Shown here one piece after another: positions 7,390 to 42,128 of a DNA stretch of 64,000 bases. A program made the position numbers and the translations under genes. The stretch lies in contig NZ_CP166840.1 of assembly GCF_041346925.1 (NCBI RefSeq), positions 558,001 through 622,000 on the forward strand, read 5' to 3'. The notes below the pieces were generated by a model. It made no database searches and was not told the DNA's origin. It saw nothing but the letters and a program-made list of their open reading frames with translations. The stretch's first letter is position 1, and each line of letters begins with the position of its first letter. This DNA comes from Agaribacterium sp. ZY112. Lineage in GTDB: Bacteria > Pseudomonadota > Gammaproteobacteria > Pseudomonadales > Cellvibrionaceae.

Positions 7390-7390
7390 G

Positions 7391-19670: not shown

Positions 19671-20843
19671 TTAAATTCCACGTTTCTTACGCTGCTCGGC
19701 AGTTAAAGCTTGAGCAAAATAGACTTCTGGGTCGTGAACCACATCGGTTTCATGACAATCATTCTTCTCACTGTTTTGCAGTAAGTTACAATCAAAACGA
19801 GCTAGAAAACTGTATTTCGTTGTTGGGTCTTTTTTATCAGCCATATGACTTAGCCCCCAACTAATACCAATACCGTCGCCAGTATCGTCAAACGCATCAG
19901 CAATATAAGGGCCTGCCGCGATAGGCATAAGCTGTGTAACGGACGCGAGATTAAAATTCACTCCGTCCTTACTATATTGAATCGTATTACTTTCATTACC
20001 GTTGCGAATGGCTAAGGCTGCGATACCTTCTTTAAAAGGGAAATAACACGTTTCATGGCCCGAGTTTAAAATCGGATTTAAACTATGTTTTTCAAAAGGG
20101 CCATGTGGGTTATCTGCTATCGCCAAACCATTACCAACAAGATAATCGGGTCTGTCACCATAAGCTGACTTGTAATACAGATGGATCTTACCTTTATAAA
20201 CCAATAGGTATGGATCATGAATGGAGAATTGATCCCAGCTACCCGGCTCTCCATTTTCTACAACGATTTCCCCTGTCGCTGTCCAAGGGCCTCGTGGGCT
20301 ATCAGACCAAGCCATTGTCACTGGACAATGATCGCCTTTAGTACCGCTGGCTTCCATAAAGGCTTGGTAATACAAATAATAACGGCCTTGCCAAACAAGA
20401 ATATCGGGCGTAGAAATCGAACGCCAACCGAGCTCAGGTTTGCTTGGCCGTTTTACTGCGACACCCTGCTCTTGCCAATGTAGGCCATCTTTACTTGTAG
20501 CGTAGAAAATATCCGCTAAATCCCAATCCATAGATGGAATGTCATCTGTACATTGTTCCGCACCACGTGGCGGTAACGGCGTGTGGCGCTTGGTGTACCA
20601 AACGTAATACAAACCATCAATTTTAATGATCTTGGAAGGATCTCGGCGGCTTACAGTGCCGTCGCTGTTGCTATAATCTAAGCCTTCAACGCGGGTATAT
20701 TTAAAGCTTGAAAATAAATCATTATCTTCGGGCCTAGGCGTTTGATAATTTTCATATAAACGCTGCATCGCCGCACTTAAAGGCCTGTCGGGTTTCGTTT
20801 GTGGAATATCCCAGGGAAAAGCGCCCTGCTCTAGCTTACTCAC
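19671..20843 (-). CDS. GH117 alpha-1,3-(3,6-anhydro)-L-galactosidase, copy B
   Basis: About 390 residues. The GTG at 20843 is the chosen start: GAGG lies six bases upstream and the gene overlaps the preceding stop by eight bases, implying translational coupling. GH117 enzymes remove non-reducing 3,6-anhydro-L-galactose from neoagaro-oligosaccharides. The five-bladed propeller signature is visible: RRDPSKIIK (putative base Asp), YYVWYTKRH, SWDQFSIHDPYLLV, then NPILNSGHET, whose His is the putative acid. No signal peptide, so probably cytosolic. It is roughly 65% similar by eye to the neighbouring copy A. The KPDRPLSAAM opening differs from characterised SdNABH-type enzymes and may mark another clade. 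Confidence 0.85.
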   Translation of the reverse strand: MSKLEQGAFPWDIPQTKPDRPLSAAMQRLYENYQTPRPEDNDLFSSFKYTRVEGLDYSNSDGTVSRRDPSKIIKIDGLYYVWYTKRHTPLPPRGAEQCTDDIPSMDWDLADIFYATSKDGLHWQEQGVAVKRPSKPELGWRSISTPDILVWQGRYYLYYQAFMEASGTKGDHCPVTMAWSDSPRGPWTATGEIVVENGEPGSWDQFSIHDPYLLVYKGKIHLYYKSAYGDRPDYLVGNGLAIADNPHGPFEKHSLNPILNSGHETCYFPFKEGIAALAIRNGNESNTIQYSKDGVNFNLASVTQLMPIAAGPYIADAFDDTGDGIGISWGLSHMADKKDPTTKYSFLARFDCNLLQNSEKNDCHETDVVHDPEVYFAQALTAEQRKKRGI

Positions 20844-22047
20844 TGCTAACCTCACTTAGCTCATCGATAGCACGCTGACGGCACTGAGACTGTTGCTCTT
20901 CACTCAAACTCTGTGCAAAAAATACTTCCGGCGCGTGAATCACATCGGTTTCTTTCATATCTGTGTTGCTGCCTCCCTGTACAAGGTTGCAATCAAAACG
21001 CCCTAAATAACTATGCTTAGTTGTTGGATCTTTTTTATCGGCAAAGTGACATAGGCCCCAGCGTATGCCTTTACCATTTTTAGTATCAATAAAGGCCTCT
21101 GGATTATAAGCTTTGGCACCAACGGGCATCATTTGTGTGACAGAGGCAATCTTAAAATTCACACCATCGGCTGACCATTGGATCGTATTAGTTTCATTAC
21201 CATTGCGAATGGCAAAAGCAGCAATGCCTTCTTTAAACGGAAAATACGTTGTCTCGTGCCCCGAGTTTAATATGGGATTTAAGGGGTGTTTTTCAAAAGG
21301 CCCTAGAGGGTTATCGGCAATAGCCAAACCATTAACACAAAGGTATTCAGGTCGGTCGCCAAAAGCGGCTTTATAATAAAGAAAAATCTTTCCATCACGG
21401 ACTAATAACGACGGGCCATGAATGGAATATTGATCCCAAGATCCTGGCTCTCCGTTTTCGATAATTTCTTTATCAATTCGAGTCCAAGGTCCGTCTGGGC
21501 TATCCGCACTGGCCATAGCGACAGGGCAGTTATCCCCCTTTAACATGCTTGGTTCATTAAAAGTCTGATAATAGAGGTAATAACGCCCTTGCCAACAAAG
21601 AATGTCTGGCGTTGCTACTGAGCGCCAGCCAAGCGTAGGTTTATCTGGCCGATTAATAGCAACACCCTGCTCCTGCCAAGTAAAACCATCTTCGCTGGTG
21701 GCGTAAAAAATATCGGCAAGGTCCCAATCCGTAGACGGAACAGTGTCACTGCAATGTTGCGCACCACGCGGAGGAAGCTCAGTATGCCTTTTGGTATACC
21801 AAACATAATAACGGCCATTGGCTTTAATTATTTTCGAAGGGTCACGACGGCTAATACAACCGTCATGCCCTCCATAATCTAAGCCTTCGAGTTTTGTGTA
21901 CTTAAAACTAGTAAATAGATCATTGTCTTCAGGGCGCGGACTTAAGTAGTTGTCGTACATACGCTCCATCGCCTCACTCAAAGGCCTGTCCGGTTTACTC
22001 TGGGGAATATCCCAAGGAAATGACTTAAACTCTGTCTTAGTTGGCAT
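20836..22047 (-). CDS. GH117 alpha-1,3-(3,6-anhydro)-L-galactosidase, copy A
   Basis: 403 residues, no signal peptide. Same signatures as copy B: FPWDIPQSKPDRPLSEAM at the start, RRDPSKIIK, YYVWYTKRH, SWDQYSIHGPSLLV and NPILNSGHET. One difference is HGPSL where copy B has HDPYL, removing an Asp; since GH117 uses several acidic residues at this blade, copy A may differ in activity or substrate. It starts 11 bases inside the end of the symporter gene, so the two are coupled. Confidence 0.85.
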   Translation of the reverse strand: MPTKTEFKSFPWDIPQSKPDRPLSEAMERMYDNYLSPRPEDNDLFTSFKYTKLEGLDYGGHDGCISRRDPSKIIKANGRYYVWYTKRHTELPPRGAQHCSDTVPSTDWDLADIFYATSEDGFTWQEQGVAINRPDKPTLGWRSVATPDILCWQGRYYLYYQTFNEPSMLKGDNCPVAMASADSPDGPWTRIDKEIIENGEPGSWDQYSIHGPSLLVRDGKIFLYYKAAFGDRPEYLCVNGLAIADNPLGPFEKHPLNPILNSGHETTYFPFKEGIAAFAIRNGNETNTIQWSADGVNFKIASVTQMMPVGAKAYNPEAFIDTKNGKGIRWGLCHFADKKDPTTKHSYLGRFDCNLVQGGSNTDMKETDVIHAPEVFFAQSLSEEQQSQCRQRAIDELSEVSSE

Positions 22048-23773
22048 TTGTTATTTCACCTACCAAGTTGTTTTTTTGATTAGCACTGTTTTTTTGATTG
22101 GCGCTGCTCTTTTGATTGGACCTGTTCTTTAGAAGCAAGGCTATACCTACAAGTAATATTAAAGCGCCCATAGACGCCACAACCAACGCGCCTTTTTCAG
22201 CAACCGCCGATAGGGATAGCATAATCACGCCTGTTGCGCCTATGCCCATAGCAATCACTTTTACGCCGTGATAATTATCACCCTCGTGATCCGCGCTAAG
22301 CTCAGAAACTTTCTCTACTTCTAACTTTTCAGCAACAATGGTTTCATAGTTTTTATAACACTGAGGCACACCACGCTTACGCGCAATAACTTCAAACACA
22401 GTAAGGATAACAACGGGCGTTAATACACCAAGTAACATTTCTTCGGCTCGATCAAGCTTAAAGTCAAACAGTACAGGCGATAAAAACTTGAAATAAGCAT
22501 TGATGCTAAGGGTCACAATACTGGTGGTTAAGATATTTCGACCGGTCTGATATTTAGAAAAAAGAAGCCAAATTGGCGGTAAAAATAACGCACCGCCAGT
22601 CAGCGCCGCCATCGTCATCACCACCTCAACAACGCCGCCCATTAATGGCACCAATAGAGCAACCCCTATCGTTACCATACCCAGACATATCGTCGCCATT
22701 CGACCAAAAAACACCATCGACTTTTCTGATGCCTGAGGTTTAAACAAGCGATATACATCGTTAGTTAAGACGCCCGCTGTGATATTTAAGGCAGTGTTAA
22801 TAGAGCTTGAGGTTGCGAAAATCATACCGCCTAGCATCAAACCCAACATACCGACAGGCAGCACCTCTTTACACATCAACAAATAAGCGCCTTCATCAGC
22901 ATTACCACTTAGATCGGGGTTAACCGTACGATAAAGCATCGGAGCTAACATCCAAACCAAAGGGCTAATACAATACAAAGCTGAGAATAACCAACCTACT
23001 TTCTTGGCATCTTGCGGTGAAGCCACGCTGGTGTAGCGCTGAATATAGGCCCAGTTACCAGCAATAAAGAAAAGATTGTAGAGGCCAAAGGCAAAAATAA
23101 AGGTCCAGGTATATTCACCGTTTGTTAAGTTAAAGAAACCTTCTGGAGCCTTTTCAACAAAAGTAGAAAAGCCACCTACATGATCAAGTGCTAGAGGCAC
23201 AACAATTAATACTGCGGCTGTTAAAACAACAAACTGAAGTATGTCGGTAACAATAACCGCCCATAAACCGCCCACAGCGGTATAGAGCAGAATAATAATA
23301 CCTAGCGCCACAACGGTTAGCGTTATAGGAAGGCCCGTACTGACCTCAACTATTTTCGCAACAGGGTATAAAAAAGCGCCTGTAGAGAAAGTGGCAATGC
23401 TTAAGAAAATAACGGTGTAGGTTTTTTGAACGGATCCACCTACTCGTTCTTTAATATATTGTGCAGCGGTTAAGGTTTTTGTTTTTTGCCAACGAGGCGC
23501 AATAAAAAATCCGATTAATAAACCGGCAATACACATGGTCCACTGTATCGTTATTGCGACCCAACCCGAGGTGTACGCAATAGAGCCCCAAACAACAAAA
23601 GTACCCGCCGAGAAAAAGCTCATAAATAGAGACAGGCCACTCATCCACCAGGGCAATGCCCCTCCGGCGGCAAAAAACCCACTCATATTCTTACCGGAGG
23701 ATGAAAAGCTAGTGCCGCAAACAACAACCAAGATGGTAAAAATGGCGATGACGCCAAGATCGATACTACCCAT
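22037..23773 (-). CDS. sodium:solute symporter (SSS family)
   Basis: 578 residues with about 13-14 hydrophobic helices across residues 1-530 and a Ser/Gln/Lys-rich repeated tail. The segments GMSGFFAAGGALPWWMSGLSL and TAAQYIKERVGG are typical of SSS transporters, which import sugars with Na+. The context suggests import of galactose, 3,6-anhydro-galactose or neoagaro-oligosaccharides across the inner membrane. It follows the GH16 gene in the operon with a 62-bp gap. Confidence 0.88.
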   Translation of the reverse strand: MGSIDLGVIAIFTILVVVCGTSFSSSGKNMSGFFAAGGALPWWMSGLSLFMSFFSAGTFVVWGSIAYTSGWVAITIQWTMCIAGLLIGFFIAPRWQKTKTLTAAQYIKERVGGSVQKTYTVIFLSIATFSTGAFLYPVAKIVEVSTGLPITLTVVALGIIILLYTAVGGLWAVIVTDILQFVVLTAAVLIVVPLALDHVGGFSTFVEKAPEGFFNLTNGEYTWTFIFAFGLYNLFFIAGNWAYIQRYTSVASPQDAKKVGWLFSALYCISPLVWMLAPMLYRTVNPDLSGNADEGAYLLMCKEVLPVGMLGLMLGGMIFATSSSINTALNITAGVLTNDVYRLFKPQASEKSMVFFGRMATICLGMVTIGVALLVPLMGGVVEVVMTMAALTGGALFLPPIWLLFSKYQTGRNILTTSIVTLSINAYFKFLSPVLFDFKLDRAEEMLLGVLTPVVILTVFEVIARKRGVPQCYKNYETIVAEKLEVEKVSELSADHEGDNYHGVKVIAMGIGATGVIMLSLSAVAEKGALVVASMGALILLVGIALLLKNRSNQKSSANQKNSANQKNNLVGEITNAN

Positions 23774-23835: not shown

Positions 23836-25107
23836 TTAATCTTTAGGGGTGTAATAACGCACCCAGTCAACTTTCATACTCGTGCCATCAATGGCATCGG
23901 TAACTGGCCCTGCTATATCCACTTTTAAAATCGCTAAACTGAAAAGCATGGTGGTCTCACTAAAACAAACATCGTTACGCATTTCGTGAAAAAGCTCACC
24001 GTCTTTATAAAAACGAAAATAATCTTCATCCCACTGCAGGCCAAAGACATGCCACTGAGTTGCGTAATCTGATACCTCTTTCGCGGCATCAAACTCTGTT
24101 AGCTCGATCCAATCTTTACCATCGTGATATTGAATTTTGTAGTCGGCAATTAGGTTTCGATACTTGCCTTTTTCAGCGCCAAACTCTTGTAACCAACCAT
24201 TAGCAAACTGTACAGCGCCAATTTCCTTGGCTTCATCCCAGTTTAATTCCAACAGTTTGGGACCGTCTTTCTTAGACACCCACCGTGTTTCCATGCGGCC
24301 ATCAATGGCGAACGCCTCTTCTGACGGAAGCTTGTTATAAATACCATTTGTTTTTAGTGAGGTATCTTTCGCAAGTGCGTGATTCACTAATGTACTGTCG
24401 TACTCTGCGTCTAAGGCTTTGGGATAGCTATCCGACGGGGCAAAGACTCTAAACTCACTAATATGCAAAGAAGATGGGTTACTTGAGATTAAACGCAGCT
24501 TTTTCGTCTTAATAGGTTTTTCAAGGGTAAGGTGATGACCCGGATCACCATCTAAGGTGTGATGTAACTGGTTATCGTGATGCATTTTTTTGCCATTTGG
24601 CAAAGTCCACGTATCTGTCCAGTTATGGATATTGCTATTGATGATATTTGGGTAGTGCCCCTCGTTCACATCAATTTCACAAGCTTTTTGCCCCTCTTTG
24701 ACACCTTGTTTGGGCCAAAACCAGAAGCTGTTATTGGTGCCGTAAGCCTCGGCATATTTCATACGCGCTTCGTAATAGCCGTAATGGAAGGCACGTTTAG
24801 ACCAAATATTACCCGTCGTCCAAGGCTGGCTGTCGTCAATGCGAGTTTCTTTTTTGGCCAACAAATGTAAAACACCATCCTCGACCTTGGCATTATCTCG
24901 CCAACGGCTGCTTAAGACCCATGGGTTTTCGGTAGCGCCATTTTGACTAACCCAGTTCTTATCAAGCTGCTTATCGGCATAGTTAAACTCATCAGACCAC
25001 TCTAGATCCCAGTTACTTAAGTCGATGCTTTGCTTGTCTGCTTGGGCAAAATTAACACTTAAACTCAAGCCAACTAAAGCCAGTGCTGTTAAGGTTTTAG
25101 TGCTCAT
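23836..25107 (-). CDS. secreted GH16 enzyme with inserted F5/8C-like module
   Basis: 423 residues with a signal peptide (residues 1-23). GH16 enzymes of this kind cut beta-1,4 bonds in agar, porphyran or carrageenan. The catalytic motif is ACEIDVNEG, with Glu144, Asp146 and Glu149 in the bulged ExDxxE form. The GH16 fold is interrupted after HNWTDTW: about residues 180-345 hold a discoidin/CBM32-like segment (LHISEFRVFAPSDSYP, AFAIDGRMETRWVSKK, then KLLELNWDEAKEIGAVQFAN). GH16 resumes at QWHVFGLQWDEDYFRFYKDG. The second GH16 at 30910 lacks this insertion. The shared motif lies 34 bp before the ATG, and the gene leads the operon. Confidence 0.88.
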   Translation of the reverse strand: MSTKTLTALALVGLSLSVNFAQADKQSIDLSNWDLEWSDEFNYADKQLDKNWVSQNGATENPWVLSSRWRDNAKVEDGVLHLLAKKETRIDDSQPWTTGNIWSKRAFHYGYYEARMKYAEAYGTNNSFWFWPKQGVKEGQKACEIDVNEGHYPNIINSNIHNWTDTWTLPNGKKMHHDNQLHHTLDGDPGHHLTLEKPIKTKKLRLISSNPSSLHISEFRVFAPSDSYPKALDAEYDSTLVNHALAKDTSLKTNGIYNKLPSEEAFAIDGRMETRWVSKKDGPKLLELNWDEAKEIGAVQFANGWLQEFGAEKGKYRNLIADYKIQYHDGKDWIELTEFDAAKEVSDYATQWHVFGLQWDEDYFRFYKDGELFHEMRNDVCFSETTMLFSLAILKVDIAGPVTDAIDGTSMKVDWVRYYTPKD

Positions 25108-25140
25108 TAAATGGCGCTCCGCTTATTTACTTTTTTATTA

Positions 25141-25166
25141 GTGTTTCGACTTCTCTAATTGACACA
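25141..25166 (-). promoter_or_regulatory. shared inverted motif upstream of GH16 gene
   Basis: TGTT-N14-TGACAC, one base away from the TGTC-N14/15-TGACAC motif found upstream of the receptor, lactonase and GH86 B genes. Confidence 0.4.
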
Positions 25167-25204
25167 AAGAATAAGGGAGCTATTGAGCTAAAGTGATTTA
25201 AGGC

Positions 25205-25825: not shown

Positions 25826-25883
25826 AAACACTGCCCTCGAGCACCAAACCATGGCACCACAATGAGCAGCGTATCCTGCCAAT

Positions 25884-28211
25884 TTATTCACCGAACCTGC
25901 GTTCATAAAGCGTTTCATTGAGCTCGGTAACGGCATCAACCAAAGGTTGATAGGGGATATCGGTTGCCGCTACAAAACCTACGTTGTAATTCTCACCATC
26001 ATAAGCACGACCCGTTAACGGTGAATCGATATATTGAAACCAATGTGTACCTACGTAATAAGGATTATCGAGTGCACTGTATACATAGTCTTGATATTTA
26101 CGGCCGCGATCCGCTTGATCTTCAGCGTGCAACAAACCCGGATTTAGCAAACCAGAATCCATAGAACCATTGTGGAACTCACCAATAATGCTCGGCATAT
26201 CCAAATCCTCTAGGAAGGCCCAATAACCATCATTGATAGACTCGCGATAGTAGTTGTAACTCATCACATCCACATACTGAGCGGCAGCGGCTCTAACTTC
26301 TGGTGTCATTGCCCAGTGAGCAAAACGAGGCCCCATATACATATGATTAGGCATAGCTTTACTTAGCTCGGCATCAACCTGCTTAAAGTAAGAGTCGGCA
26401 TAAATAAATAACAAGTCAGATAGATCGGCAAGTAAGGCCTTATTATCGAGACTCTCTAGCTCAAGACCTTTAGCAAAATCAGCCCACGATGCCTCGTCAA
26501 CAGCCCACGCCTTATTTAAGCTGGCAATGTTTTTATATTTCGCCTTCATTTTATCGACAAACACCGCTTTTAATGGGCTCTGTGCAGCATCAAGCTTTAA
26601 ACCGTTGATCGCAATACCGTAACGAAGAGCCGGACTGCCCTCAGTGCCCCAACTTTTTTCGTTGTCGATAAACACCCCCACACACCAAGGGTTGTCTTGA
26701 ACCTCGTCGGCAATCTGCTTAACCGTCGCTTTAACTCGCTCGCCAAATACTGGGTCAAAAGGATCCGGCATCGGCCCCCAATAATCATTAGCACTGCTCA
26801 CTGTTTTAAAGTCACCAATAATCCAACCATTAGCAAAATACGGAAGCCTATCCATTTGGTAATAACTTGGATCGACCCAGTTGCCAAAAGAAGTAAAGCC
26901 CCAAGTGTGCATACGCTTAATCGTCGTATCACGCCACTGACTCATCAGCGCCTGCTCATCCTGCGTGCCAAATTTTCGTGCAAGGTTGGCGCGGTAAAAA
27001 CTGAAAGTTTCACCACGCTCTATAGCGCCGATGTGAACCTCACGGCGATAACCAAAACTAGCTGCCTCTTCGCTATTGTAATCAGGCAACCAAGTAAACA
27101 TATTAGCCCTAAGCTCTGAACTTACTTTACGTGTTGGCCACGCCTGTTTAGGCACACGATTCAAACCAACAGAATCTTCTGGGGTATCGTCATCAGCTTT
27201 GCGTTCAGGAATTAGACTGTGATCAAAGTCGTAACCGGTGATGGTTGAGGTATTCGCCATACGAATATTGGCAATGCCGTTAGACCAAAATAAATAGCCC
27301 TCGGGATCAACCAGAGACCATTTACCATCAATTTTTTCAGTTCGGTAATAGCCCGTCGCTTCAAGTTTAGGACCCGCTAACCAGCCATTATATTTGGAGC
27401 GCCCCTCAAGTGGCTTATCACGTAGGGCCGCTTGCTCTTTCTTAGAGATCTCAAGCAGTTCATCAAGACTGTGTACTTTATCAGGGAAGTCAATCTTGGC
27501 ATTTTGCCCAAATTGATCCACCAGACCGTGCAAATAATGCTCTTCCACGAACTGCTGGCTGAGCACACGTACATTATCAAGAATTAAACGCTTATCATCC
27601 GGTACAGCCATAACCTTAATGGCCACTTCAGTGATTGCCGAAGTGTCTAAGCCTTCTTTATTGCCACCACGCCAAATAGTCTGCACATAATCCCCCTGCC
27701 AGCTAGCAGGGTTGTTTCGCATACCTGTATTTACTTGTAGCGCAGGAACATCTAATTCAATTAAATAACTCAGATCGGACTCAGCCGGCACCACAACATT
27801 ACGCAAATGGAAATTGCCCGCACTGTCATAGACGTAGATATATATGTGCGTTGACGTGCTCTGAGGATTATAAAGATCAACGGCAAGACTAGGGTGCTCT
27901 ACTTGAGAAAAATCCCAAGGCTTAACAGGCTTCAAAGAGAAAGAGGCCGTATCCACCTCGGAACTCGCCAAATGAATATCATAAGCGTGGCCACTGGCGT
28001 TTTTAATTATTTTCGCCGTCGCATGACTTAAAGATACACTCTTGCTATCTTCACCGCTTTCAAAATCTAACAGCGTTGCCTGCTTCTTATGACTGGCCAC
28101 CTGCACGGTCTTGGCCGTTTCTTTCCCAGAACATGCAGAAAAGATAAGTGCTGTAGCGGGAATGGATACGATCGCTAGGGCCGTTAATACCCTTTTAGTT
28201 ATTGCTGTCAT
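25884..28211 (-). CDS. GH50 exo-beta-agarase lipoprotein
   Basis: 775 residues from the ATG at 28211, chosen because it opens the lipoprotein signal (lipobox FSAC, Cys at residue 27). An in-frame ATG 18 codons upstream is less likely. GH50 exo-agarases release neoagarobiose. An N-terminal beta-sandwich module (about 40-220) precedes the (beta/alpha)8 barrel. FIDNEKSWG carries the putative acid/base Glu518 and IIGEFHNG the nucleophile Glu678; their 160-residue spacing matches Saccharophagus Aga50D as I remember it. Probably anchored to the outer membrane. It is the last gene of the sigma/anti-sigma operon. Confidence 0.92.
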   Translation of the reverse strand: MTAITKRVLTALAIVSIPATALIFSACSGKETAKTVQVASHKKQATLLDFESGEDSKSVSLSHATAKIIKNASGHAYDIHLASSEVDTASFSLKPVKPWDFSQVEHPSLAVDLYNPQSTSTHIYIYVYDSAGNFHLRNVVVPAESDLSYLIELDVPALQVNTGMRNNPASWQGDYVQTIWRGGNKEGLDTSAITEVAIKVMAVPDDKRLILDNVRVLSQQFVEEHYLHGLVDQFGQNAKIDFPDKVHSLDELLEISKKEQAALRDKPLEGRSKYNGWLAGPKLEATGYYRTEKIDGKWSLVDPEGYLFWSNGIANIRMANTSTITGYDFDHSLIPERKADDDTPEDSVGLNRVPKQAWPTRKVSSELRANMFTWLPDYNSEEAASFGYRREVHIGAIERGETFSFYRANLARKFGTQDEQALMSQWRDTTIKRMHTWGFTSFGNWVDPSYYQMDRLPYFANGWIIGDFKTVSSANDYWGPMPDPFDPVFGERVKATVKQIADEVQDNPWCVGVFIDNEKSWGTEGSPALRYGIAINGLKLDAAQSPLKAVFVDKMKAKYKNIASLNKAWAVDEASWADFAKGLELESLDNKALLADLSDLLFIYADSYFKQVDAELSKAMPNHMYMGPRFAHWAMTPEVRAAAAQYVDVMSYNYYRESINDGYWAFLEDLDMPSIIGEFHNGSMDSGLLNPGLLHAEDQADRGRKYQDYVYSALDNPYYVGTHWFQYIDSPLTGRAYDGENYNVGFVAATDIPYQPLVDAVTELNETLYERRFGE

Positions 28212-28275
28212 TGTTATTCTCAAATACTTTATTAACACTGCATTAGTGTCTTCAAGCTTAAGCATGACACATCAG

Positions 28276-29832
28276 CTAAAGCCGATTGTTTTCAACAAGG
28301 GATTTAATCGCCTCTTGATCTAGGGCTGAATCAAAAATATAAACCTCATCCAAAGAGCCGCGAAAGAACTTGTTTTCTTTATAAGGATTATCAAAGGCGA
28401 TATTACGCCCCATAACTAAAGGCTTGCTGCGAGGGTGGTTAATATCTGTATTCACTCGCGTAATACTTTTATGGGGTGTCGCTTCGAGCTCACCATCAAT
28501 GTAGATTAGTACATGGGTTGAAAGATCCACAGCCTCGCCACCAAAAAGCACAATGGCTACGTGGTGCCATTGTTCATCACGCAAGTCGCTATCGCCAACA
28601 ACAACGCCCTCAGCAGTACCAATGCGTATCCGCCCAAGCGGTCCGCTAACATCCAAAGGATTTATAGAAATCTGCCATGCATTTTGTTGATCATGCAAAC
28701 CCCAACTTAAAATACCAAAGCCTTCGGAGACAGAAAAATCTTTGGGCACTTTGACCCAAAAAGCCACCGTACGTGGCTTATTGCCACCAATGCCGGGAAA
28801 CTCTGTCGCCAACCAATTATCGCGACCATTGAAATAAATCGCTTGTTGAAATACGCCGGTGACAGGTTTTGGCGCAGGTGCGGCATGATTCAGTGTTTTC
28901 ACTTCGGCACTAAAACACTGATCGGCAATTCCTGGCCCCCGACAGCGGTAACGACCACCCTCAGCTTGATCTAGTTGCCAATGCATATAAGCAGGAGCGT
29001 CGCTGCTTGTCCCTGGTAGTGTGCGCATAAAACGCTGTGGCTGACTCTCTATCTGAGCCACCTGCTGCTCAAGGTCAAAAGCACGAGCCTGATCTTTGAC
29101 TAAATATTCAAACTCCTGCTTATCAGATGCACGGACTTTAACCTCGCCGTCAAGCACGTGGACTTGCGACTCCCCCTGCGAATCAACAGACACGCCAAAT
29201 TCTGTACCCAAATCAACAATATAAGAGCTCGGAGTATCAACCTTAAAACCTACAGCCTGCTCGGGCACACGGGCAACCAAGCTACCTCTATTTAAAATAA
29301 TATGAGCATAGGATTTAAGATCGAGTTCAACCGGAGCCTCTAATACTAAAGTGACTCCATTTTTAAGACTGACTTCGGCGTAACCTTGATCCAAATGAAA
29401 AGGGCCACGATAAATACTCTGACCTTTTTGTAAGGATTTGCTGCCAGTACTCACCGCCGTTAATTTACTAATACTGCCCAATTCACGCTGCAAGTAGCTC
29501 GCATCAAAGATGAACAAACCCATAATCAAAACCGCACATGCGGCTAGCCACGGCACAAAACCACGAGCATAAGACTTAGGCCGAATACTACCTTGCTCAC
29601 CACTTACGGTATCGGCACTTAGCGCTCGCTCCTCAATTCGCGCCTGTATGCCACGCATAAATGCCTTATCGCCCTGAGTAAGCAAAGCGTGTTTTAGTTG
29701 TCGCTGCCAAGCCCTCTGCTCGACCAAATACCTCAGCAGCTCAGGGTTTTTATCACAGGCTTCAAGCAAGGCATCGTCAACATCTAAGCCTGCCAAGTAG
29801 TCGGCGACCAACTGTTCTTCACGCTTATTCAC
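28276..29832 (-). CDS. FecR-type anti-sigma factor with C-terminal LamG domain
   Basis: 518 residues from a GTG at 29832, chosen because AAGGAG lies six bases upstream and the start overlaps the sigma-factor stop by eight bases. Residues 1-90 form a cytosolic sigma-binding part, 91-109 are a single membrane helix (FVPWLAACAVLIMGLFIF), about 130-235 a FecR domain (ILNRGSLVARVP, VDLGTEFGVSV, VHVLDGEVKVR), and 330-518 a LamG/concanavalin-like domain (YFNGRDNWLATEF, WHHVAIVLFGG, FRGSLDEVYIFD). The topology puts FecR and LamG in the periplasm, where LamG could bind a saccharide. The pairing suggests saccharide-controlled release of the sigma factor; ligand and mechanism are inferred. Confidence 0.88.
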   Translation of the reverse strand: MNKREEQLVADYLAGLDVDDALLEACDKNPELLRYLVEQRAWQRQLKHALLTQGDKAFMRGIQARIEERALSADTVSGEQGSIRPKSYARGFVPWLAACAVLIMGLFIFDASYLQRELGSISKLTAVSTGSKSLQKGQSIYRGPFHLDQGYAEVSLKNGVTLVLEAPVELDLKSYAHIILNRGSLVARVPEQAVGFKVDTPSSYIVDLGTEFGVSVDSQGESQVHVLDGEVKVRASDKQEFEYLVKDQARAFDLEQQVAQIESQPQRFMRTLPGTSSDAPAYMHWQLDQAEGGRYRCRGPGIADQCFSAEVKTLNHAAPAPKPVTGVFQQAIYFNGRDNWLATEFPGIGGNKPRTVAFWVKVPKDFSVSEGFGILSWGLHDQQNAWQISINPLDVSGPLGRIRIGTAEGVVVGDSDLRDEQWHHVAIVLFGGEAVDLSTHVLIYIDGELEATPHKSITRVNTDINHPRSKPLVMGRNIAFDNPYKENKFFRGSLDEVYIFDSALDQEAIKSLVENNRL

Positions 29833-30400
29833 CGCCCTCTCCTTCTGCTGCACTTTTTATACAATCCTTTAGCCACTGACGCGCCCTATGTAAGCGCATC
29901 GTCACCGTTGAATGTTTAACACCCAGTTTTTCCGTGAGCTCTTTGACAGCCCACCCTTGCAAATAGTGCATTCGTATTAGTTCCTGAGCCTCATGACTTA
30001 ACTTCAGTAAGCAGGCTCTTAAGGCCGTACCGTGATATGACTCCAATTCACGCTCGTCCAGCTCTTGCTCTTGCTCATCGATCAGCGCCTCTAAACGGCT
30101 CGGACAACTAGGCTCCATACGCCTCTGCTTGCGGTGATGATTGCGCAGCAAGTTGTGGGCTATTCCACAAAGCCACGCAGAAAACGAAGCGCTGTCTTCC
30201 AGTTCATCAAGCTTATTAAAAGCCAATACAAAGCTCTCTTGAGCAATATCATCCACATCGTGAGCAAGGTAGGTACGCGCAGCAATAAAAGCGCGCAGCT
30301 TATTTTGCTGCAGACTCACAAGCTCGGTAAAGGCGGAACTATCCCCACGGCGAGCAGCAGTAATCAGACTGCCGTAATCGGGTTTTAGTTGTTTAGTCAT
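29825..30400 (-). CDS. ECF-type RNA polymerase sigma factor
   Basis: 191 residues from the ATG at 30400; a TTG seven codons upstream would also be in frame. Region 2 shows ARRGDSSAFTELV and DDIAQESFVLAFNKL; region 4 shows LIRMHYLQGWAVKELTEKLG and HSTVTMRLHRARQWLK. It directs RNA polymerase to a small regulon and is probably held inactive by the FecR-LamG protein encoded just downstream with an eight-base overlap. The shared operon with a GH50 agarase suggests control of agar degradation and likely autoregulation. Confidence 0.92.
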   Translation of the reverse strand: MTKQLKPDYGSLITAARRGDSSAFTELVSLQQNKLRAFIAARTYLAHDVDDIAQESFVLAFNKLDELEDSASFSAWLCGIAHNLLRNHHRKQRRMEPSCPSRLEALIDEQEQELDERELESYHGTALRACLLKLSHEAQELIRMHYLQGWAVKELTEKLGVKHSTVTMRLHRARQWLKDCIKSAAEGEGGE

Positions 30401-30413: not shown

Positions 30414-30677
30414 TCAATCAATCAGCCACGTCTTTACCTTAGCACTTTCGCTAAAGAAGGCCTTCAGGCCCAGCACTTGATTTACACCTTCCCAACTAGT
30501 GTTTACAGGCACTCGTTTTGACACTCTCGTTACAGCCCCAGGTTTAGAAGCCCTTGTTAAGAGCCCCTCTTTTAGTCGCACTCTTTCAGTGAGCGGCTCT
30601 GACACATTGAAACTCAAGTAGGCGTTAACGGCGATTAGCACAAGCCCAAAACCCCAAAAATGAAAACCAAAATCCAT
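30414..30677 (-). CDS. small single-TM protein upstream of the sigma factor
   Basis: 87 residues with one N-terminal membrane helix (MDFGFHFWGFGLVLIAVNAY) and a basic C-terminal tail. It ends 13 bases before the sigma-factor ATG, consistent with one operon. No family recognised; the ORF may be spurious, as it occupies part of the promoter region. Confidence 0.35.
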   Translation of the reverse strand: MDFGFHFWGFGLVLIAVNAYLSFNVSEPLTERVRLKEGLLTRASKPGAVTRVSKRVPVNTSWEGVNQVLGLKAFFSESAKVKTWLID

Positions 30678-33276: not shown

Positions 33277-33657
33277 ATTGCTACTAAGTGACGCGCAAAA
33301 CAGGCCAATAACGATTTACCCCGTCTACTGTTACCCCACCCTACTGGCTGCTGAAATAACGTCATTCTAAGCATAGTCGTGTGTTTAAACCGCCTACTTA
33401 AGGGCGTTGTAGCGAAACAGCTATAGACCTTCATGGCACGTTTTGCAGTACGTTTCCCTCCTATTTATAACTTTTTTATCTATCAATCCAGGAAAAGCAA
33501 CACAAGTCTTCTTATATGTATTGACTTTGTGTCATTTCCTTAGACAAGCAACACCAATAAATAAGGCATAGATGAAGGAACACATGCTGATGCGTTTAAT
33601 AAGCATAAGCTAATGTATTGCAATAATAAATAAGAACAACTAGTTATAGAGTTTGAG
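33277..33657. other. intergenic promoter region of the PAS-AraC gene
   Basis: About 380 bp without a gene. It holds a TTGACT at 33521-33526 and, overlapping it, a TGTGTCA...GACA inverted site (33528-33546) with a shorter spacer than the shared motif. A minus-strand ORF crossing the terminator is a shadow. Confidence 0.45.
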
Positions 33658-34401
33658 ATGATTCCCAAAGCCGATTTTGATCCACATAAAATTTTAGAAC
33701 CAATCAACATTGGTAATTTCTTAAGTTTTTATGAGTTATTTGAAGAAACACTCTTCTGGATAAAGGACACCCAAGGCCGCTTTGTTCATGCTAACCGGGC
33801 TCTGTTAAACAATCTTAAGGTCAAATCTGCTGAAGAAATAATCGGTAAAGATGACACTCATATCACGGGCATTAAACTAGCACGCTCAGTTATGGAAGAT
33901 GACCAGAAGGTATGCCATGGTGAACCTGTTAAAAATCGTCTGGTACTCAACAAAAATAAGCAAGGTGAATTTTCTTGGTTTATCACTAATAAAATCCCCC
34001 TTAAAAATAAGCACGATAAAACTGTCGCTATTATGGGAATATCCATACCCATGGAACAATTTCCTTATACAACCCACCGCATGGAGTCGCTGCTAGCTCC
34101 TCTGCAATATATTATAGAGAACTACAACCAAAAGATCTCGATAGAAAGCTTAGCTAGTATCGCTTGTATTTCGGTAAGTGCGCTTGAACGACGCTTCAAA
34201 AAATACTTACAGAAAACACCAAGCCAACTTATTATTGAAATACGCTTGGAAAAAGCGCGTCTTCTTTTAAAGCAAACTAAATCCCCCATCACCAATATTG
34301 CTGAAGAAACTGGATTTTATGACCACAGCAATTTCACCAAACGTTTTGCTGAATATTTTGGCATGACTCCCATAGAATACAGATCAGAAAATAGCTTTTA
34401 A
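33658..34401 (+). CDS. AraC-family regulator with N-terminal PAS domain
   Basis: 247 residues. A PAS-like domain (about 22-125) shows LFWIKDTQGRFVHANRALL and EIIGKDDTHIT; the AraC double helix-turn-helix follows (about 145-247) with SIESLASIACISVSALERRF and ITNIAEETGFYDHSNFTKRF. The PAS part would sense a small ligand, unlike the cupin domain of most AraC proteins. Cytosolic. It sits among the polysaccharide genes, so it probably controls some of them; targets unknown. Not obviously autoregulated. Confidence 0.88.
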   Translation: MIPKADFDPHKILEPINIGNFLSFYELFEETLFWIKDTQGRFVHANRALLNNLKVKSAEEIIGKDDTHITGIKLARSVMEDDQKVCHGEPVKNRLVLNKNKQGEFSWFITNKIPLKNKHDKTVAIMGISIPMEQFPYTTHRMESLLAPLQYIIENYNQKISIESLASIACISVSALERRFKKYLQKTPSQLIIEIRLEKARLLLKQTKSPITNIAEETGFYDHSNFTKRFAEYFGMTPIEYRSENSF

Positions 34402-36819: not shown

Positions 36820-39800
36820 TTAGAAGTTCACACGAACGCCAAGACGATAAGTAGTACCGACCTTATAGTTGTAAACGGTACGATCTTTGGTCACGTTATC
36901 ATTCTCAAGCGGATTACCTTCGTCATAGCCGCTATAGACAACCTGATCATTTTCACCAAGGCCTTTAACAATTGGCAGTGTTGAGCTGGTGAAATATTGA
37001 CGATAAGCAGCATCTGTTAAGTTAATTGCCTGGAAAGTCACATCGATATAATCATTAACGTTATAGGTCGCACTTAAATCTAAGGTATCGCGCCCTTCAT
37101 TCCAGAGCATGCCTTGCTCCCAACTACGACCGCGAACATGAGCCCCTTTATTCCAGTCTCTATCAACCAAAGAATCGGTTGAACCACGATAGCTCAAGCG
37201 TACTTGATGCCCATCCTGCTCCCAAAAACCCGTTAGGTTGTAGGTGTGCTCCGGGGTATCAGGTACCGGGACGCTGTATTCATTGCCCCAAGCATCAACG
37301 AGTTCTTCACCTTCATTAGCTTCATATTTACTTTGTTGATAGGTGTAGTTAGCACTCATACCTAAACCACTTAAGAAATAACCAGGGAGGAAATCGTAAG
37401 CCTGACTATAACCAAGCTCTAAACCGCTAATACTCGCGTCCTGAGCATTTTGAACTTGAATAACGGTTGGCTTAGCGCACAGATCTCTTAAGTCGTTACT
37501 AAAGCGAGTTGAATCACCGACTTGATTGAAAAAGTCTGTGGTTGCCGTTAATGGCATACAACCTTCCAAGCCATAGTTACCTGATGCACTATCATTTTCA
37601 TCAACATTAATTAACAATGTATTTGGATCTAGGCCATTCTCTTCTACGGCGTCAAAACGAACGTCGGTGATATAACTGAGACTGGTTTGAGCATCGGTAA
37701 AATTACTCATGTCCTTGTGGAAAACAGCCGCGCTCACCATACTGCTATCATTGAAATACCACTCATAACTTAAATCGAGGTTATTAGAGGTAAGCGGCTC
37801 AAGCTTGGTGTTATACATATCTACAGAACCTACCTGAGGACTGCTGCCCCCCCAATAAGCACCGTTACGTACTGTAAAGCCCGCACGCGTATCCTCAAAC
37901 TCTGGACGTGTCATGGTTTTTGAAATCGCTGCACGAATAACCATGTCGTCATTAAGGGCAAAGTTCACATTTAAACTCGGCAGAATATTTGTGTAGCTAT
38001 GGCTATCTTCTACAGCCTCAGAAAGCGAAGTACGATCTAGCTGATTAGCAACGGTAAAGTCACTCACTACTGTGCCTTCACCGTTCCAGGTGATATTAGT
38101 AGGGCTATTGGCATCTGTATAATCCCAGCCATTATTGCGGCTAGTATCAACGTAAGCATAACGCCACATACTTAACCAATTAATAGGTGGCGCCTGCGTA
38201 TCGTTATCTGGGTTATCATCCATTAACAAATCAGCATATTGCGCGTATTCAGCATCGTAACAATTACCGTCGCCCTGAATGCGGGTCCACTGATCTGGGT
38301 TGATGTCCCACGTTTCAGTTGCAGGATCAAAAGTCGTACCTTGGCTAGTATCCCAACCAATACCATCTACACGCTGCCATTTACGCTCGAAATCTTGGAA
38401 GACAGGCGCGCCCTCTTCAGTTGTTGCCACGGCTTGTGGAGCACGACAAGCATCTAAGCCCATCTCATCGCCAAAGCGAAGCTGGCGCATGTAGACAAGA
38501 TCAAATTCACTTTCGTTAGCGTTGCCATCATAATCATGGAAGGTGGCGCCAGCATAACCTTCGGCCTCAATCTCAGACCTCACATAACGCACACCAATAT
38601 CACCTGTGAGGCGATCATCCATAAATGCAAAATTTTGCTTTAAATATAAAGCCCCAGTATCAAGCTGCTGGCTACGGGTATTTAAATCATTAGAAACACG
38701 AAATACATCTGGAGTACCCACCACCATGTTAAAAGCTTCTTCAACATCAATAGGTGTCCAGCCGTAGGTTGTGTTAGAACGACCATAACCCAGGGTTTCC
38801 ATAAAGTTATCGTAAGCAAGACCAGGGCCCGCGATAATGTTTCCGCGAATACCATCAAGCGAACCACCAGGTTGAGCAATGATATTGCCCTCTTCATCAC
38901 GAATAGGGTCTTTTACACTGGACGAGCCAAAGCTATAACTTTGGTCATCAACACTTTTTTCTCGACTTGTTGCTTTTAAACCAAATTCAGTCGTAGTTAA
39001 AAAGCCCATATCTAAATCAAGGTCAAAATCGACCTGAGCCTGAATCCACTCATCCTCAACGGTTCTATCGGTTTCAGATATCGAGCCCAAATGAAAAGCG
39101 GCGCTATCAGCAGGATTAAAGCCCGTATGTACTGTGTTATCCCACCAATCACGAAGTATGTCGCCATCCTCTTCATAATCACCAGAGTCTTGCTCGCCAT
39201 AATCAATCAAGCTTGTGCCCGCAATCACCGTATATTTATCACCATTGCTGGTATAACCGGTTGGCTGGATATTGGTGCCCGCTTCAGCCAACAGCACATC
39301 AGTGACCTGAGTGAAGTTCTGCATATTAGTCCAAGCATTTGGTAGGCTCTCGGATTTACTTGATGAATAACCCGCCCGGGCAGACATCCTCAAGTTATCC
39401 ATAAGCTCTTGATCTAATTCGAGTGACAAAGCAAAGTTTTTATTTTTAGTACCGCCCTCCGAGCGACGAAGATCACCAATACCACCACGCGAAATTTTTT
39501 GCGTCATAGTCATTGAATCCGTATCGACTCTATACCAATCGGCTTGAGGGTCTGAATAAGGAGCTGGCTGGGCACGCCCATCATAATCAAACTGAGAAAA
39601 CTGTACGCCCTCTACAAAGTTTGCATCAGGCCCGGGATTACGACTTAGCATAGAGTCAGAGCTTCGCTCTTGGGTCTGCTCGCTATAAGTCACATTAAAC
39701 ATTAATTCTGTTTTATCGCTTGGAGCCCACTGAACACCTGCATTGACGCCTGTTCGATCACTTGTGTTTTGGTGCAATTCATAAGCGACACTTGAGGGCT

Positions 39801-40560
39801 CAATAGCGCGAAAATCACTGATCTGGTTACCATGTTGATCCGTTGCAACCTGTATGGACTCACGTGATTCGACCCAATCTTCGATGCGTAACTGATCTTT
39901 ACGATAGGTATTGGTTTCATCGTAAACCGTAGCAGTAACACCTAGACTGTCATTAAGGAATTTCTTTGAAAGAGAAACTTGTAATTTATGATCAAGCTCT
40001 TCAGCAAAGTCGTTATATCGGCCTTGAATAGTACCGGTCATAACGTCGTTAGCCTGATCAAGAGGACGTGTAGTTACAAGGTTGACACTTGCACCAAGCG
40101 AGCCTTCATCGTGGTCCGCACTTGGGGTTTTAACAACCTCCAACTTCGATAAGATATCAGAAGAGAAAGAGCTTAAATCTACGCCCTGGTTAAAGTCGGT
40201 TGAGGTCAGTGCAACACCATTAAGAGAGATCTGGTTCTGGGTGGAAGTAGCACCACGAACCGTAATTTGTGAGCCTTCACCATCGCGACTAACAACCGTT
40301 ACACCGGTTACACGACCAAGAGAGTCGGCAATGTTTTGGTCCGTGGTCTTACCCATATCTTCGGCATTAATTGTATCGACAATATTCTTAGCTTCACGCT
40401 TATCATCGATAGAGCGCATCATAGCGCCTTTAATACCGGTTACGATCAGTTCTTCTTCCAGTCCTGTAGTATCATCTTGGGCTAGAACGGAACCACTATT
40501 GACCGCTAAAACTGCCGCTGATATAGCAGACACTTTAAAGCGACGAGAGATGTTAGACAT
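36820..40560 (-). CDS. TonB-dependent outer-membrane receptor
   Basis: 1246 residues from the ATG at 40560, with GGAG seven bases upstream. Signal peptide to about residue 27, then a plug domain opened by EELIVTGIKGAMMRSIDDKR, DSLGRVTGVTVV and SQITVRGA, in the Caulobacter-type TonB-receptor style, then a long beta-barrel ending YKVGTTYRLGVRVNF with a terminal Phe for assembly. This class imports large saccharides. In this setting it would take up agaro-oligosaccharides released by the GH86, GH16 and GH50 enzymes. Co-transcribed with the lipoprotein downstream. Confidence 0.92.
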   Translation of the reverse strand: MSNISRRFKVSAISAAVLAVNSGSVLAQDDTTGLEEELIVTGIKGAMMRSIDDKREAKNIVDTINAEDMGKTTDQNIADSLGRVTGVTVVSRDGEGSQITVRGATSTQNQISLNGVALTSTDFNQGVDLSSFSSDILSKLEVVKTPSADHDEGSLGASVNLVTTRPLDQANDVMTGTIQGRYNDFAEELDHKLQVSLSKKFLNDSLGVTATVYDETNTYRKDQLRIEDWVESRESIQVATDQHGNQISDFRAIEPSSVAYELHQNTSDRTGVNAGVQWAPSDKTELMFNVTYSEQTQERSSDSMLSRNPGPDANFVEGVQFSQFDYDGRAQPAPYSDPQADWYRVDTDSMTMTQKISRGGIGDLRRSEGGTKNKNFALSLELDQELMDNLRMSARAGYSSSKSESLPNAWTNMQNFTQVTDVLLAEAGTNIQPTGYTSNGDKYTVIAGTSLIDYGEQDSGDYEEDGDILRDWWDNTVHTGFNPADSAAFHLGSISETDRTVEDEWIQAQVDFDLDLDMGFLTTTEFGLKATSREKSVDDQSYSFGSSSVKDPIRDEEGNIIAQPGGSLDGIRGNIIAGPGLAYDNFMETLGYGRSNTTYGWTPIDVEEAFNMVVGTPDVFRVSNDLNTRSQQLDTGALYLKQNFAFMDDRLTGDIGVRYVRSEIEAEGYAGATFHDYDGNANESEFDLVYMRQLRFGDEMGLDACRAPQAVATTEEGAPVFQDFERKWQRVDGIGWDTSQGTTFDPATETWDINPDQWTRIQGDGNCYDAEYAQYADLLMDDNPDNDTQAPPINWLSMWRYAYVDTSRNNGWDYTDANSPTNITWNGEGTVVSDFTVANQLDRTSLSEAVEDSHSYTNILPSLNVNFALNDDMVIRAAISKTMTRPEFEDTRAGFTVRNGAYWGGSSPQVGSVDMYNTKLEPLTSNNLDLSYEWYFNDSSMVSAAVFHKDMSNFTDAQTSLSYITDVRFDAVEENGLDPNTLLINVDENDSASGNYGLEGCMPLTATTDFFNQVGDSTRFSNDLRDLCAKPTVIQVQNAQDASISGLELGYSQAYDFLPGYFLSGLGMSANYTYQQSKYEANEGEELVDAWGNEYSVPVPDTPEHTYNLTGFWEQDGHQVRLSYRGSTDSLVDRDWNKGAHVRGRSWEQGMLWNEGRDTLDLSATYNVNDYIDVTFQAINLTDAAYRQYFTSSTLPIVKGLGENDQVVYSGYDEGNPLENDNVTKDRTVYNYKVGTTYRLGVRVNF

Positions 40561-40756
40561 CGTTGAGCTCTCCATCTGGATTTTATTGTTTTATTAACAG
40601 CCCTTCTCGTATTTTTATGAATATCACGGATAGGGCTTGCTGGACTACAGCAGAGTAAAACAGGAGGACTTAGACGACTTGTAGAATTTCAGCGTTTTGA
40701 GAATCAATAGCAGTATTTAAAATTGTCAAGACATACATATATATGTTAATGGGGGC

Positions 40757-40782
40757 GTGTCAAAAGCACCGATAATTGACAC
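40757..40782 (-). promoter_or_regulatory. shared inverted motif upstream of TonB receptor
   Basis: TGTC-N15-TGACAC (also readable as GTGTCAA/TTGACAC), about 200 bp upstream of the receptor ATG. It could alternatively be part of the end of the lactonase gene. Confidence 0.45.
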
Positions 40783-40806
40783 ACCTTTCAACACAAACTT
40801 AACAAG

Positions 40807-42024: not shown

Positions 42025-42101
42025 ACAAACATACCCTCTACTCAATGAATTACTAATAATGCCCAACACTCGATCATCTAACGAATAAACAACTCACTTA
42101 A

Positions 42102-42126: not shown

Positions 42127-42128
42127 TT

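What the first reader, a model, noticed from the sequence alone, without database searches (positions are those of the whole stretch)
28276..30400. Sigma factor with a membrane FecR anti-sigma carrying a LamG sensor, in the agarase operon
An ECF sigma gene overlaps a gene encoding a FecR anti-sigma factor fused to a periplasmic LamG domain, which is followed by a GH50 agarase. LamG domains often bind saccharides, so the pair could sense agar fragments in the periplasm and release the sigma factor, unlike the usual TonB-receptor-linked FecR systems. Such FecR-LamG fusions are, as far as I recall, known mostly from Planctomycetes and related groups.
Basis: partly seen in the sequence, partly recalled or inferred. 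Interest (0 to 1): 0.75.

Follow-up and report, generated by a model that had tools for sequence, protein, structure and literature searches.

The report
Likely agar-sensing sigma/anti-sigma pair
A bacterium that carries agar-digesting genes has a gene-switching protein and a membrane guard protein with a sugar-binding-type outer domain, a design otherwise seen mainly in Verrucomicrobia and Planctomycetes, that together probably switch those genes on.

Summary
An ECF sigma gene (30400..29825, -) overlaps by 8 nt a gene (29832..28276, -) for a one-pass membrane protein with cytoplasmic helices, FecR and LamG; a GH50 agarase follows. Full-length orthologues were found in 12 other Gammaproteobacteria, 11 with agar genes beside them. 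New here: (1) a two-part promoter-like sequence, TGTGTCA-N15/16-ACAC(T/C)(T/A)A or close to it, lies before the first operon gene at 12 of 12 of those loci and, in the window, before the sigma, GH50, GH16, TonB-receptor, lactonase and AraC genes; (2) a second sigma/FecR-LamG pair of this genome, beside a GH29-type gene, has another motif, GAAACA-N12-GCGACA, found in this genome only before its own sigma and enzyme genes; (3) a tree places the agar clade among Verrucomicrobiota; (4) the Gly-Thr bond where E. coli FecR self-cleaves is kept, but LamG replaces the receptor-contacting end; (5) in more distant relatives that slot can hold LamG, NPCBM, CBM96 or CBM6. Best reading: a carbohydrate-sensing anti-sigma factor controls an agar regulon without a TonB transducer. 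Ligand binding and sigma release are inferred. A new variant of a known kind.

The parts
29825..30400 (-). ECF sigma factor, TIGR02989 type (191 aa, ATG 30400)
28276..29832 (-). FecR-LamG one-pass membrane protein, presumed anti-sigma factor (518 aa, GTG 29832)
   Evidence: AlphaFold2 model mean pLDDT 86.3
29614..29832 (-). cytoplasmic anti-sigma region, residues 1-73, four helices in the model (residues 72-90 are of low confidence)
   Evidence: 33% mean identity between gamma orthologues over residues 1-88
29491..29559 (-). transmembrane helix, residues 92-114
   Evidence: helix in model; best Kyte-Doolittle window 2.30 at 91-109
29137..29388 (-). FecR domain, residues 149-232
   Evidence: Pfam PF04773
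29203..29208 (-). Gly209-Thr210, position of the E. coli FecR self-cleavage bond (Gly181-Thr182)
   Evidence: 34 of 34 proteins of alignment A3 keep GT
28306..28827 (-). LamG domain, residues 336-509
   Evidence: Pfam PF13385; fold match to AbnA domain 4
30496..30526 (-). candidate sigma promoter of the sigma/FecR-LamG genes
28243..28272 (-). candidate sigma promoter of GH50
25138..25167 (-). candidate sigma promoter of GH16 and the genes after it
40754..40784 (-). candidate sigma promoter of the TonB-dependent receptor; this copy is palindromic
42098..42127 (-). candidate sigma promoter of the lactonase gene (ACATTAA in place of ACACTAA)
33527..33557 (+). candidate sigma promoter of the PAS-AraC regulator gene
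51850..51874 (-). weaker match, 309 bp before the second porphyranase-like (GH86-type, label recalled) gene
25884..28211 (-). GH50 exo-beta-agarase-like protein
23836..25107 (-). GH16 enzyme; weak F5/8 type C match (under Pfam's cut-off) inside it
22037..23773 (-). sodium:solute symporter
20836..22047 (-). GH117-like enzyme, first copy (71% identical to the second)
19671..20855 (-). GH117-like enzyme, second copy; best PDB hits 4u6d, 4u6b
17378..19666 (-). FAD-dependent oxidoreductase
36820..40575 (-). TonB-dependent receptor, no STN domain found
40807..42069 (-). lactonase-type beta-propeller
33658..34401 (+). PAS-AraC regulator

Best explanation
It is a dedicated ECF sigma factor with a membrane anti-sigma factor whose periplasmic sensor is a LamG (concanavalin-A-like) domain. 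Without agar, the N-terminal helices hold the sigma factor at the membrane. Agar or sulfated-agar oligosaccharides enter the periplasm through STN-less TonB receptors and bind LamG; the change passes through the FecR domain, probably self-cut at Gly209-Thr210, and lets Prc-like and RseP proteases remove the periplasmic part and free the sigma factor. Sigma then starts transcription at TGTGTCA-N15/16-ACACTAA-like sites before its own gene, GH50, GH16-symporter-GH117-GH117-FADox, the TonB receptor, the lactonase and the PAS-AraC gene: a self-amplifying agar regulon. Shown from sequence: architecture, conserved linkage, the shared motif and its place, no STN found in the linked receptors tested, the conserved Gly-Thr, the presence of RseP and Prc homologues. 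Inferred: that this sigma reads this motif, anti-sigma (not pro-sigma) action, ligand identity, proteolysis, sigma release.
For: Linkage: of 143 other family genomes, 9 hold a full-length orthologue; all 9 have sigma before it and GH50 after it, and 8 of 9 hold the whole set GH16, symporter, GH117-like, FADox, sigma, FecR-LamG, GH50 (the ninth contig is 9157 bp long). Within the family the close GH117 subfamily (64% identity or more) occurs in the same 10 genomes, window included, and in no other of the 144. Psychrosphaera and Agaribacter have the set too. Motif: present before the first operon gene at 12 of 12 orthologous loci, three of them fetched after the motif had been noticed; GTGTCAN{15,16}ACA occurs 8 times in the window against 0.81 expected, reached by 0 of 100 shuffles; TGTCAN{15,18}ACACTA occurs 5 times in the 4.28 Mb genome, 3 of them before sigma, GH50 and GH16. 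Sigma link: the second pair has its own motif, GAAACA-N12-GCGACAWW; 2 of 2 genome-wide hits lie before its sigma and its GH29-type gene, and 2 of 3 in G045. Sensor: LamG is the best conserved part between ten gamma proteins (69% mean identity; FecR 67%, linker 48%, anti-sigma region 33%, TM 26%); its nearest single-domain PDB fold match is domain 4 of the arabinanase AbnA (5hon); of 42 more distant relatives scanned the slot holds LamG in 15, NPCBM in 7, CBM96 in 3, CBM6 in 1. No TonB transducer: no STN in the window receptor or in 3 of 3 linked receptors tested.
Against: No binding, expression or proteolysis data exist here. The looser motif GTGTCAN{15,16}ACAC is not enriched over whole genomes: 194 matches against 190 for the reversed control over 20 genomes (106 against 83 in the 10 carriers), so only its placement is informative, and the window sites helped to define it. 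It was not seen in place at the five verrucomicrobial loci scanned (L055-L058, L063; one match in L057, wrong strand). The TonB-receptor copy is palindromic and GTGT...ACAC is partly so, which leaves room for a DNA-binding regulator. The Colwellia orthologue (51% identity) sits with a sulfatase and no GH50 in its 21.6 kb locus, so the ligand may be a wider or sulfated galactan. The three other same-genus genomes searched lack the gene. Outside the agar clade the gene after FecR-LamG is often no obvious enzyme: L069 has a PEP-CTERM protein, L077 a passenger-repeat protein and L063 a protein without Pfam match. At least 16 of the 42 distant FecR proteins show none of the four modules. TIGR02989 is passed by only 0.55 bits. 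Many LamG domains bind proteins, not sugars (general knowledge).
Confidence: 0.65

Rival explanations
1. The sigma/FecR-LamG pair controls the agar genes, but LamG does not bind sugar; it contacts another envelope protein (for example the STN-less receptor or a lipoprotein) or peptidoglycan, and the signal reaches it second-hand.
For: LamG domains are versatile (general knowledge); a TonB receptor leads the operon at three Gilvimarinus/Marinimicrobium loci and carries the motif in the window.
Against: The same slot in some relatives is filled by sugar-binding module families (NPCBM, CBM96, CBM6), and the neighbouring enzyme differs between subfamilies: GH50, GH29-type or sulfatase, though not every relative has an enzyme there.
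Confidence: 0.2
2. TGTGTCA-N15/16-ACAC is the binding site of another regulator such as the PAS-AraC protein, and the sigma factor controls few genes.
For: The receptor site is a perfect palindrome; a PAS-AraC gene lies beside the cluster.
Against: The sigma gene is present at all 12 other loci, while no relative of the PAS-AraC gene showed among the neighbours seen there (loci of 9 to 22 kb). The right half is asymmetric (ACACTAA-like, without the TG that a TGACAC palindrome needs) in 16 of the 17 copies aligned. The second sigma pair shows the same layout with a different motif.
Confidence: 0.1
3. FecR-LamG acts mainly as a pro-sigma (activator), as E. coli FecR does, so loss of it silences the regulon.
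For: E. coli FecR N-terminal fragments activate FecI and its N-terminal 59 residues are essential for ECF activity (PMC9249621 and PMC7406223, passages).
Against: The N-terminal region is weakly conserved (33%), and the sigma factor is TIGR02989 type, only 26% identical to FecI over 155 columns. Neither decides the matter.
Confidence: 0.15

Closest known systems
E. coli FecI/FecR and other cell-surface signalling pairs (PMC9249621, passages read)
   Same: ECF sigma gene next to a one-pass FecR protein; profile comparison aligns the two up to residue 253 here and 225 of E. coli FecR (probability 75, E 2.5e-5), with the Gly-Thr self-cleavage bond at the same place
   Different: The C-terminal part that receives the receptor signal is replaced by LamG; no STN in the linked receptors tested; sigma is of the TIGR02989 group
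Clostridium thermocellum SigI biomass-sensing sigma factors with RsgI anti-sigma factors (PMC4711584, abstract and section list read)
   Same: Several paralogous sigma factors activated by extracellular polysaccharides, each with its own promoter consensus before its own sigma gene and enzyme genes. That RsgI carries outer carbohydrate-binding domains is recalled
   Different: SigI-type sigma and RsgI-type anti-sigma of a Gram-positive; not FecR-based
ECF sigma/anti-sigma pairs of Bacteroides glycan use (PMC10766802, passages read)
   Same: ECF pair controlling glycan degradation in a Gram-negative
   Different: They frequently regulate SusC/D-type TonB transporters; no LamG sensor is described in the passages seen
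ECF52/ECF53 sigma factors with fused anti-sigma and predicted carbohydrate-binding domains (PMC10766802, passage read)
   Same: Sugar-binding modules in a sigma/anti-sigma system
   Different: Sigma and anti-sigma are one protein, discussed there for Actinobacteria; computational prediction only

Membership tests
FecI/FecR cell-surface signalling system | ECF sigma gene adjacent to a FecR-domain protein | tested here: met
FecI/FecR cell-surface signalling system | one TM segment, N-terminus inside | tested here: met
   prediction only: helix 92-114, best hydrophobic window 91-109, 3 K/R in the 20 residues before and 2 after, so a weak charge signal; in the window protein a stretch near 425, inside LamG, also passes 1.6. 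8 of 10 gamma proteins keep a Cys pair in the outer linker
FecI/FecR cell-surface signalling system | Gly-Thr self-cleavage bond | tested here: met
   bond position conserved, 34 of 34 of alignment A3; cleavage itself not tested
FecI/FecR cell-surface signalling system | C-terminal domain that contacts the receptor's signalling domain | tested here: not met
   hhalign with E. coli FecR stops at FecR residue 225 of 317; LamG follows instead
FecI/FecR cell-surface signalling system | linked TonB receptor with an STN domain | tested here: not met
   no STN in the window receptor or 3 linked receptors (the L067 frame lacks its first residues, which one search shows to leave no room for STN); two STN domains in the genome, both far from here and not identified
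TIGR02989 sigma factors (Rhodopirellula/Verrucomicrobium family) | score over the curated cut-off | tested here: met
   125.1 against 124.55 bits, marginal; second sigma of the genome 138.2; 12 of 12 aligned sigmas match at E up to 1e-20, cut-off not shown for each; over the cut-off in 0 of 14 control genomes
RsgI-type carbohydrate-sensing anti-sigma factors | outer carbohydrate-binding module (recalled) | tested here: inconclusive
   LamG fold, nearest single-domain PDB match AbnA domain 4; binding untested
RsgI-type carbohydrate-sensing anti-sigma factors | SigI-type sigma partner | tested here: not met
   partner is an ECF sigma

The most novel reading that the evidence does not exclude
FecR anti-sigma factors with interchangeable sugar-binding outer modules (LamG, NPCBM, CBM96, CBM6) form a large, undescribed class of carbohydrate receptors in Verrucomicrobia and Planctomycetes, each wired by its own promoter code to its own sigma gene and target genes; agar- and GH29-linked members crossed at least twice into marine Gammaproteobacteria, where they replace TonB-transducer signalling in agar use.
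Probability: 0.45. Interest if true: 0.78.

Novelty: new variant of a known kind. Interest (0 to 1): 0.63.

Why it matters
How agar-degrading bacteria sense agar was not described in the listings and passages I saw. This gives a concrete candidate sensor, sigma factor, promoter sequence and gene list that can be tested in cultured carriers such as Gilvimarinus agarilyticus. It also suggests how Verrucomicrobia and Planctomycetes (Planctomycetes have large sigma-factor and sulfatase families; PMC4807772, passage) may match regulators to polysaccharides: by swapping the outer module of a FecR anti-sigma factor. Two pairs with separate promoter codes in one genome could be useful as orthogonal sugar-responsive switches.

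Tried and rejected
A single-protein scan of genome contigs found nothing; the alignment scan did. The idea that the motif marks a large regulon genome-wide was rejected: no overall enrichment. G007, which has a GH117 relative (54%) but no FecR-LamG, was looked at as a control; its GH117 genes lie in a different operon and no motif is found in 16 kb, so it is only weak support. A classical TonB-transducer FecR was rejected. An even class-wide sample found no other carrier at E up to 1e-15 (0 of 368 others), although 12 carriers are known from other calls, so the gene is rare and clade-limited in Gammaproteobacteria. Base composition gave no clear sign of recent arrival (sigma-FecR-LamG 47.6% GC, window 44.0%). 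Literature searches: FecR, LamG and sigma factor gave 1 paper and FecR with LamG 6; by its title PMC10434189 is the only microbiological one, and its passages name the two words in separate table rows. ECF sigma, FecR and agarase: none. Verrucomicrobia, anti-sigma, sulfatase and ECF: none. GH117 with two Zobellia locus names: none. PMC5943477, PMC7406223 and PMC4807772 were seen in passages only and mention no FecR-LamG protein there. The 2021 ECF re-classification paper and the 2012 Planctomycetes comparative paper are not held, so an earlier mention there cannot be excluded. VIA-align was not available.

Full report
What is there. On the minus strand an ECF sigma gene (30400..29825) overlaps by 8 nt the gene of a 518-aa protein (29832..28276) with FecR (residues 149-232) and LamG (336-509) domains. 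An AlphaFold2 model from 34 aligned proteins (mean pLDDT 86.3, pTM 0.68) shows four N-terminal helices, a long helix at 92-114 that is also the most hydrophobic stretch, a beta FecR part and a LamG sandwich; residues 72-90 are of low confidence. The start codons are my refinement (Shine-Dalgarno AAGGAG and alignment with orthologues).

Neighbours. GH50 follows (775 aa from the revised start; 772.9 bits to agarase 4bq2), then GH16, a sodium symporter, two GH117-like genes, of which the second has as best solved relatives 4u6d and 4u6b (over 500 bits) ahead of the anhydro-galactosidases (about 220 bits or less), and an FAD oxidoreductase. Farther off lie two porphyranase-like genes (GH86-type by recall), two sulfatases, a TonB receptor in which no STN is found, a lactonase and two AraC-type genes. 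The substrate is therefore probably agar or a sulfated agar such as porphyran, not plain agarose alone; that is inference.

Conservation. Of 144 family genomes (own included) the protein search hit 19, but only the own genome and 9 others hold full-length orthologues (E of 1e-162 or better); the three other same-genus genomes have none. In 9 of 9 the order sigma, FecR-LamG, GH50 is kept, and in 8 of 9 the whole seven-gene set is in view (the ninth contig is short). A genome-contig scan with the alignment gave 506 candidate stretches, 399 relatives, 80 kept as 79 loci. Psychrosphaera keeps GH50 directly downstream, Agaribacter has it about 6 kb away, and Colwellia has a sulfatase there and no GH50 in view. 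An even sample of the class found a match in 0 of 368 other genomes. The close GH117 subfamily (64% identity or more) occurs in exactly the 10 family genomes that carry the FecR-LamG orthologue, own genome included; one further genome (G007, 88% complete) has a 54% relative and no FecR-LamG.

Promoter. Reading the upstream regions showed TGTGTCA followed 15-16 nt later by ACAC(T/C)(T/A)A. It, or a close variant, lies before the first operon gene at 12 of 12 other gamma loci: two (Psychrosphaera, Agaribacter) have ACA but not ACAC, and Colwellia has GGTGTCA. Three of the 12 (L129-L131, before a TonB receptor that leads the operon) were fetched after the motif had been noticed, but these three are close relatives; three others (L027-L029) are near-copies of each other. 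It also precedes a GH2-type gene (Pfam) that is beside GH50 in one Gilvimarinus and on another contig in a second. In the window GTGTCAN{15,16}ACA has 8 matches at 7 places, against a mean of 0.81 in shuffles, reached by 0 of 100. Six places lie in sense before sigma, GH50, GH16, TonB receptor, lactonase and PAS-AraC; the seventh is 309 bp before a porphyranase-like gene. From the end of the motif to the start codon is about 30 nt for GH50, GH16 and lactonase, about 95-100 for sigma and PAS-AraC and about 180 for the receptor. The tighter TGTCAN{15,18}ACACTA has 5 matches in the genome, 3 of them here; by a binomial this has P about 3e-5, but the pattern was shaped partly by these sites, so this is a description and not a test. 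Genome-wide the looser GTGTCAN{15,16}ACAC is not enriched: summed over 20 genomes 194 against 190 for the reversed control, 106 against 83 in the 10 carriers. It was not found in place at five verrucomicrobial loci.

The second pair is the best control. The only other FecR-domain protein found in this genome is also a FecR-LamG next to a TIGR02989 sigma, followed by a gene of the alpha-L-fucosidase family PF01120 (GH29 by recall); the same trio exists in G045. Comparing the two gave GAAACA-N12-GCGACAWW before sigma and before the enzyme gene in both genomes. A genome search with a spacer of 12 to 15 found 2 of 2 hits at those two places in the own genome and 2 of 3 in G045, the third with spacer 14 elsewhere; the pattern came from these four sites, so the news is the near-absence of others. 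Two pairs in one genome, same layout, different motif: this links each motif to its own sigma factor.

Mechanism. E. coli FecR Gly181-Thr182, the self-cleavage bond (PMC9249621, passages), falls on Gly209-Thr210 here by two alignments and is kept in 34 of 34 proteins of alignment A3; a loose LGT pattern is found in 83 of 89 FecR-like frames of the loci. That review says self-cleavage is not essential in the FecR and FoxR systems, so the bond supports kinship more than mechanism. The profile alignment to E. coli FecR ends at its residue 225 of 317 (probability 75, E 2.5e-5), before the part that receives the receptor signal; LamG stands there instead. Prc-family proteases and RseP exist in the genome, as in most bacteria. 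LamG and FecR are the best conserved parts between ten gamma proteins (69% and 67% mean identity, against 48% linker, 37% juxtamembrane, 33% anti-sigma region, 26% TM). The nearest single-domain structural match for LamG is domain 4 of arabinanase AbnA, a structure 'in complex with' a ligand whose name is cut off in the listing (5hon, TM-score 0.65 by target). I scanned 75 of the 89 FecR-like frames of the loci. In the nearer set (A3: 33 of these plus the window) 33 of 34 have LamG. In the 42 more distant ones Pfam finds LamG in 15, NPCBM in 7 (one of them under Pfam's cut-off when shown), CBM96 in 3, CBM6 in 1, and none of these four in at least 16. The CBM6 case is in a MAG labelled Emcibacter. 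The simplest reading is that the outer slot takes sugar-binding modules.

Origin. In a quick maximum-likelihood tree of 76 proteins (74 of the 89 frames, 15 being dropped for length outside 430-620 aa, plus window and own paralogue), the ten agar-clade rows form one group (support 100), inside a 19-row group with 9 Verrucomicrobiota (99) and a 38-row group with 28 Verrucomicrobiota (98). The own paralogue and its Gilvimarinus partner join a Prosthecobacter protein (92, not starred) elsewhere. Pseudomonadota need at least two changes on that tree. PF04773 matches, of any architecture, number 17 in the Luteolibacter, 11 in the Blastopirellula, 7 in the Haloferula and 3 in the Rubritalea genome searched.

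Compared with what is known. It works like the polysaccharide-sensing SigI/RsgI pairs of Clostridium thermocellum (PMC4711584, abstract) and shares its membrane core with FecR. It is not a full member of the FecI/FecR system, since the receptor-contact domain and the STN receptor were tested and not met. One review of bacterial hemicellulase gene control, which treats ECF pairs (PMC10766802, passages), has no mention of FecR in its main text; FecR with LamG gave no relevant paper in the held library. The central ECF classification paper is not held.

Verdict. The architecture and the regulon signal are well supported from sequence; sensing of agar by LamG is a good but untested inference.

Noticed in passing
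L036:8797-12646 (own genome, C1 about 2271296-2275145) and L037:6819-10588 (G045): A second sigma/FecR-LamG pair followed by an alpha-L-fucosidase-family (PF01120) gene, with its own motif GAAACA-N12-GCGACAWW before both units.
   Followed up: yes
L121:202-2481: In a Phycisphaerae MAG one open frame encodes sigma regions 2 and 4, FecR and LamG together: a possible fused sigma/anti-sigma/sensor.
   Followed up: no
L122:9509-11566: A MAG labelled Emcibacter has a sigma gene and a FecR protein ending in CBM6.
   Followed up: no
window 25200-25880: The long gap before GH16 holds about three diverged copies of one stretch (around GTCGATCTATTCAGGGACGCCGTAAATATATCCCTATAGGCTT, seen).
   Followed up: no
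window 449-11855: A run of small, mostly minus-strand frames (about 120-290 aa), possibly a gene-cassette array or other mobile region.
   Followed up: no
L053:11697-14632 (-): In Agaribacter a 962-aa frame between FecR-LamG and GH50 also has a TGTGTCA...ACA site 47 bp upstream, so it may belong to the regulon.
   Followed up: no
L058:6574-9015, L063:11550-13997, L056:6254-8731: Secreted-looking proteins of 813-825 aa sharing an SGIYP stretch near the start lie beside verrucomicrobial FecR-LamG genes; the one scanned (L063) has no Pfam match.
   Followed up: partly
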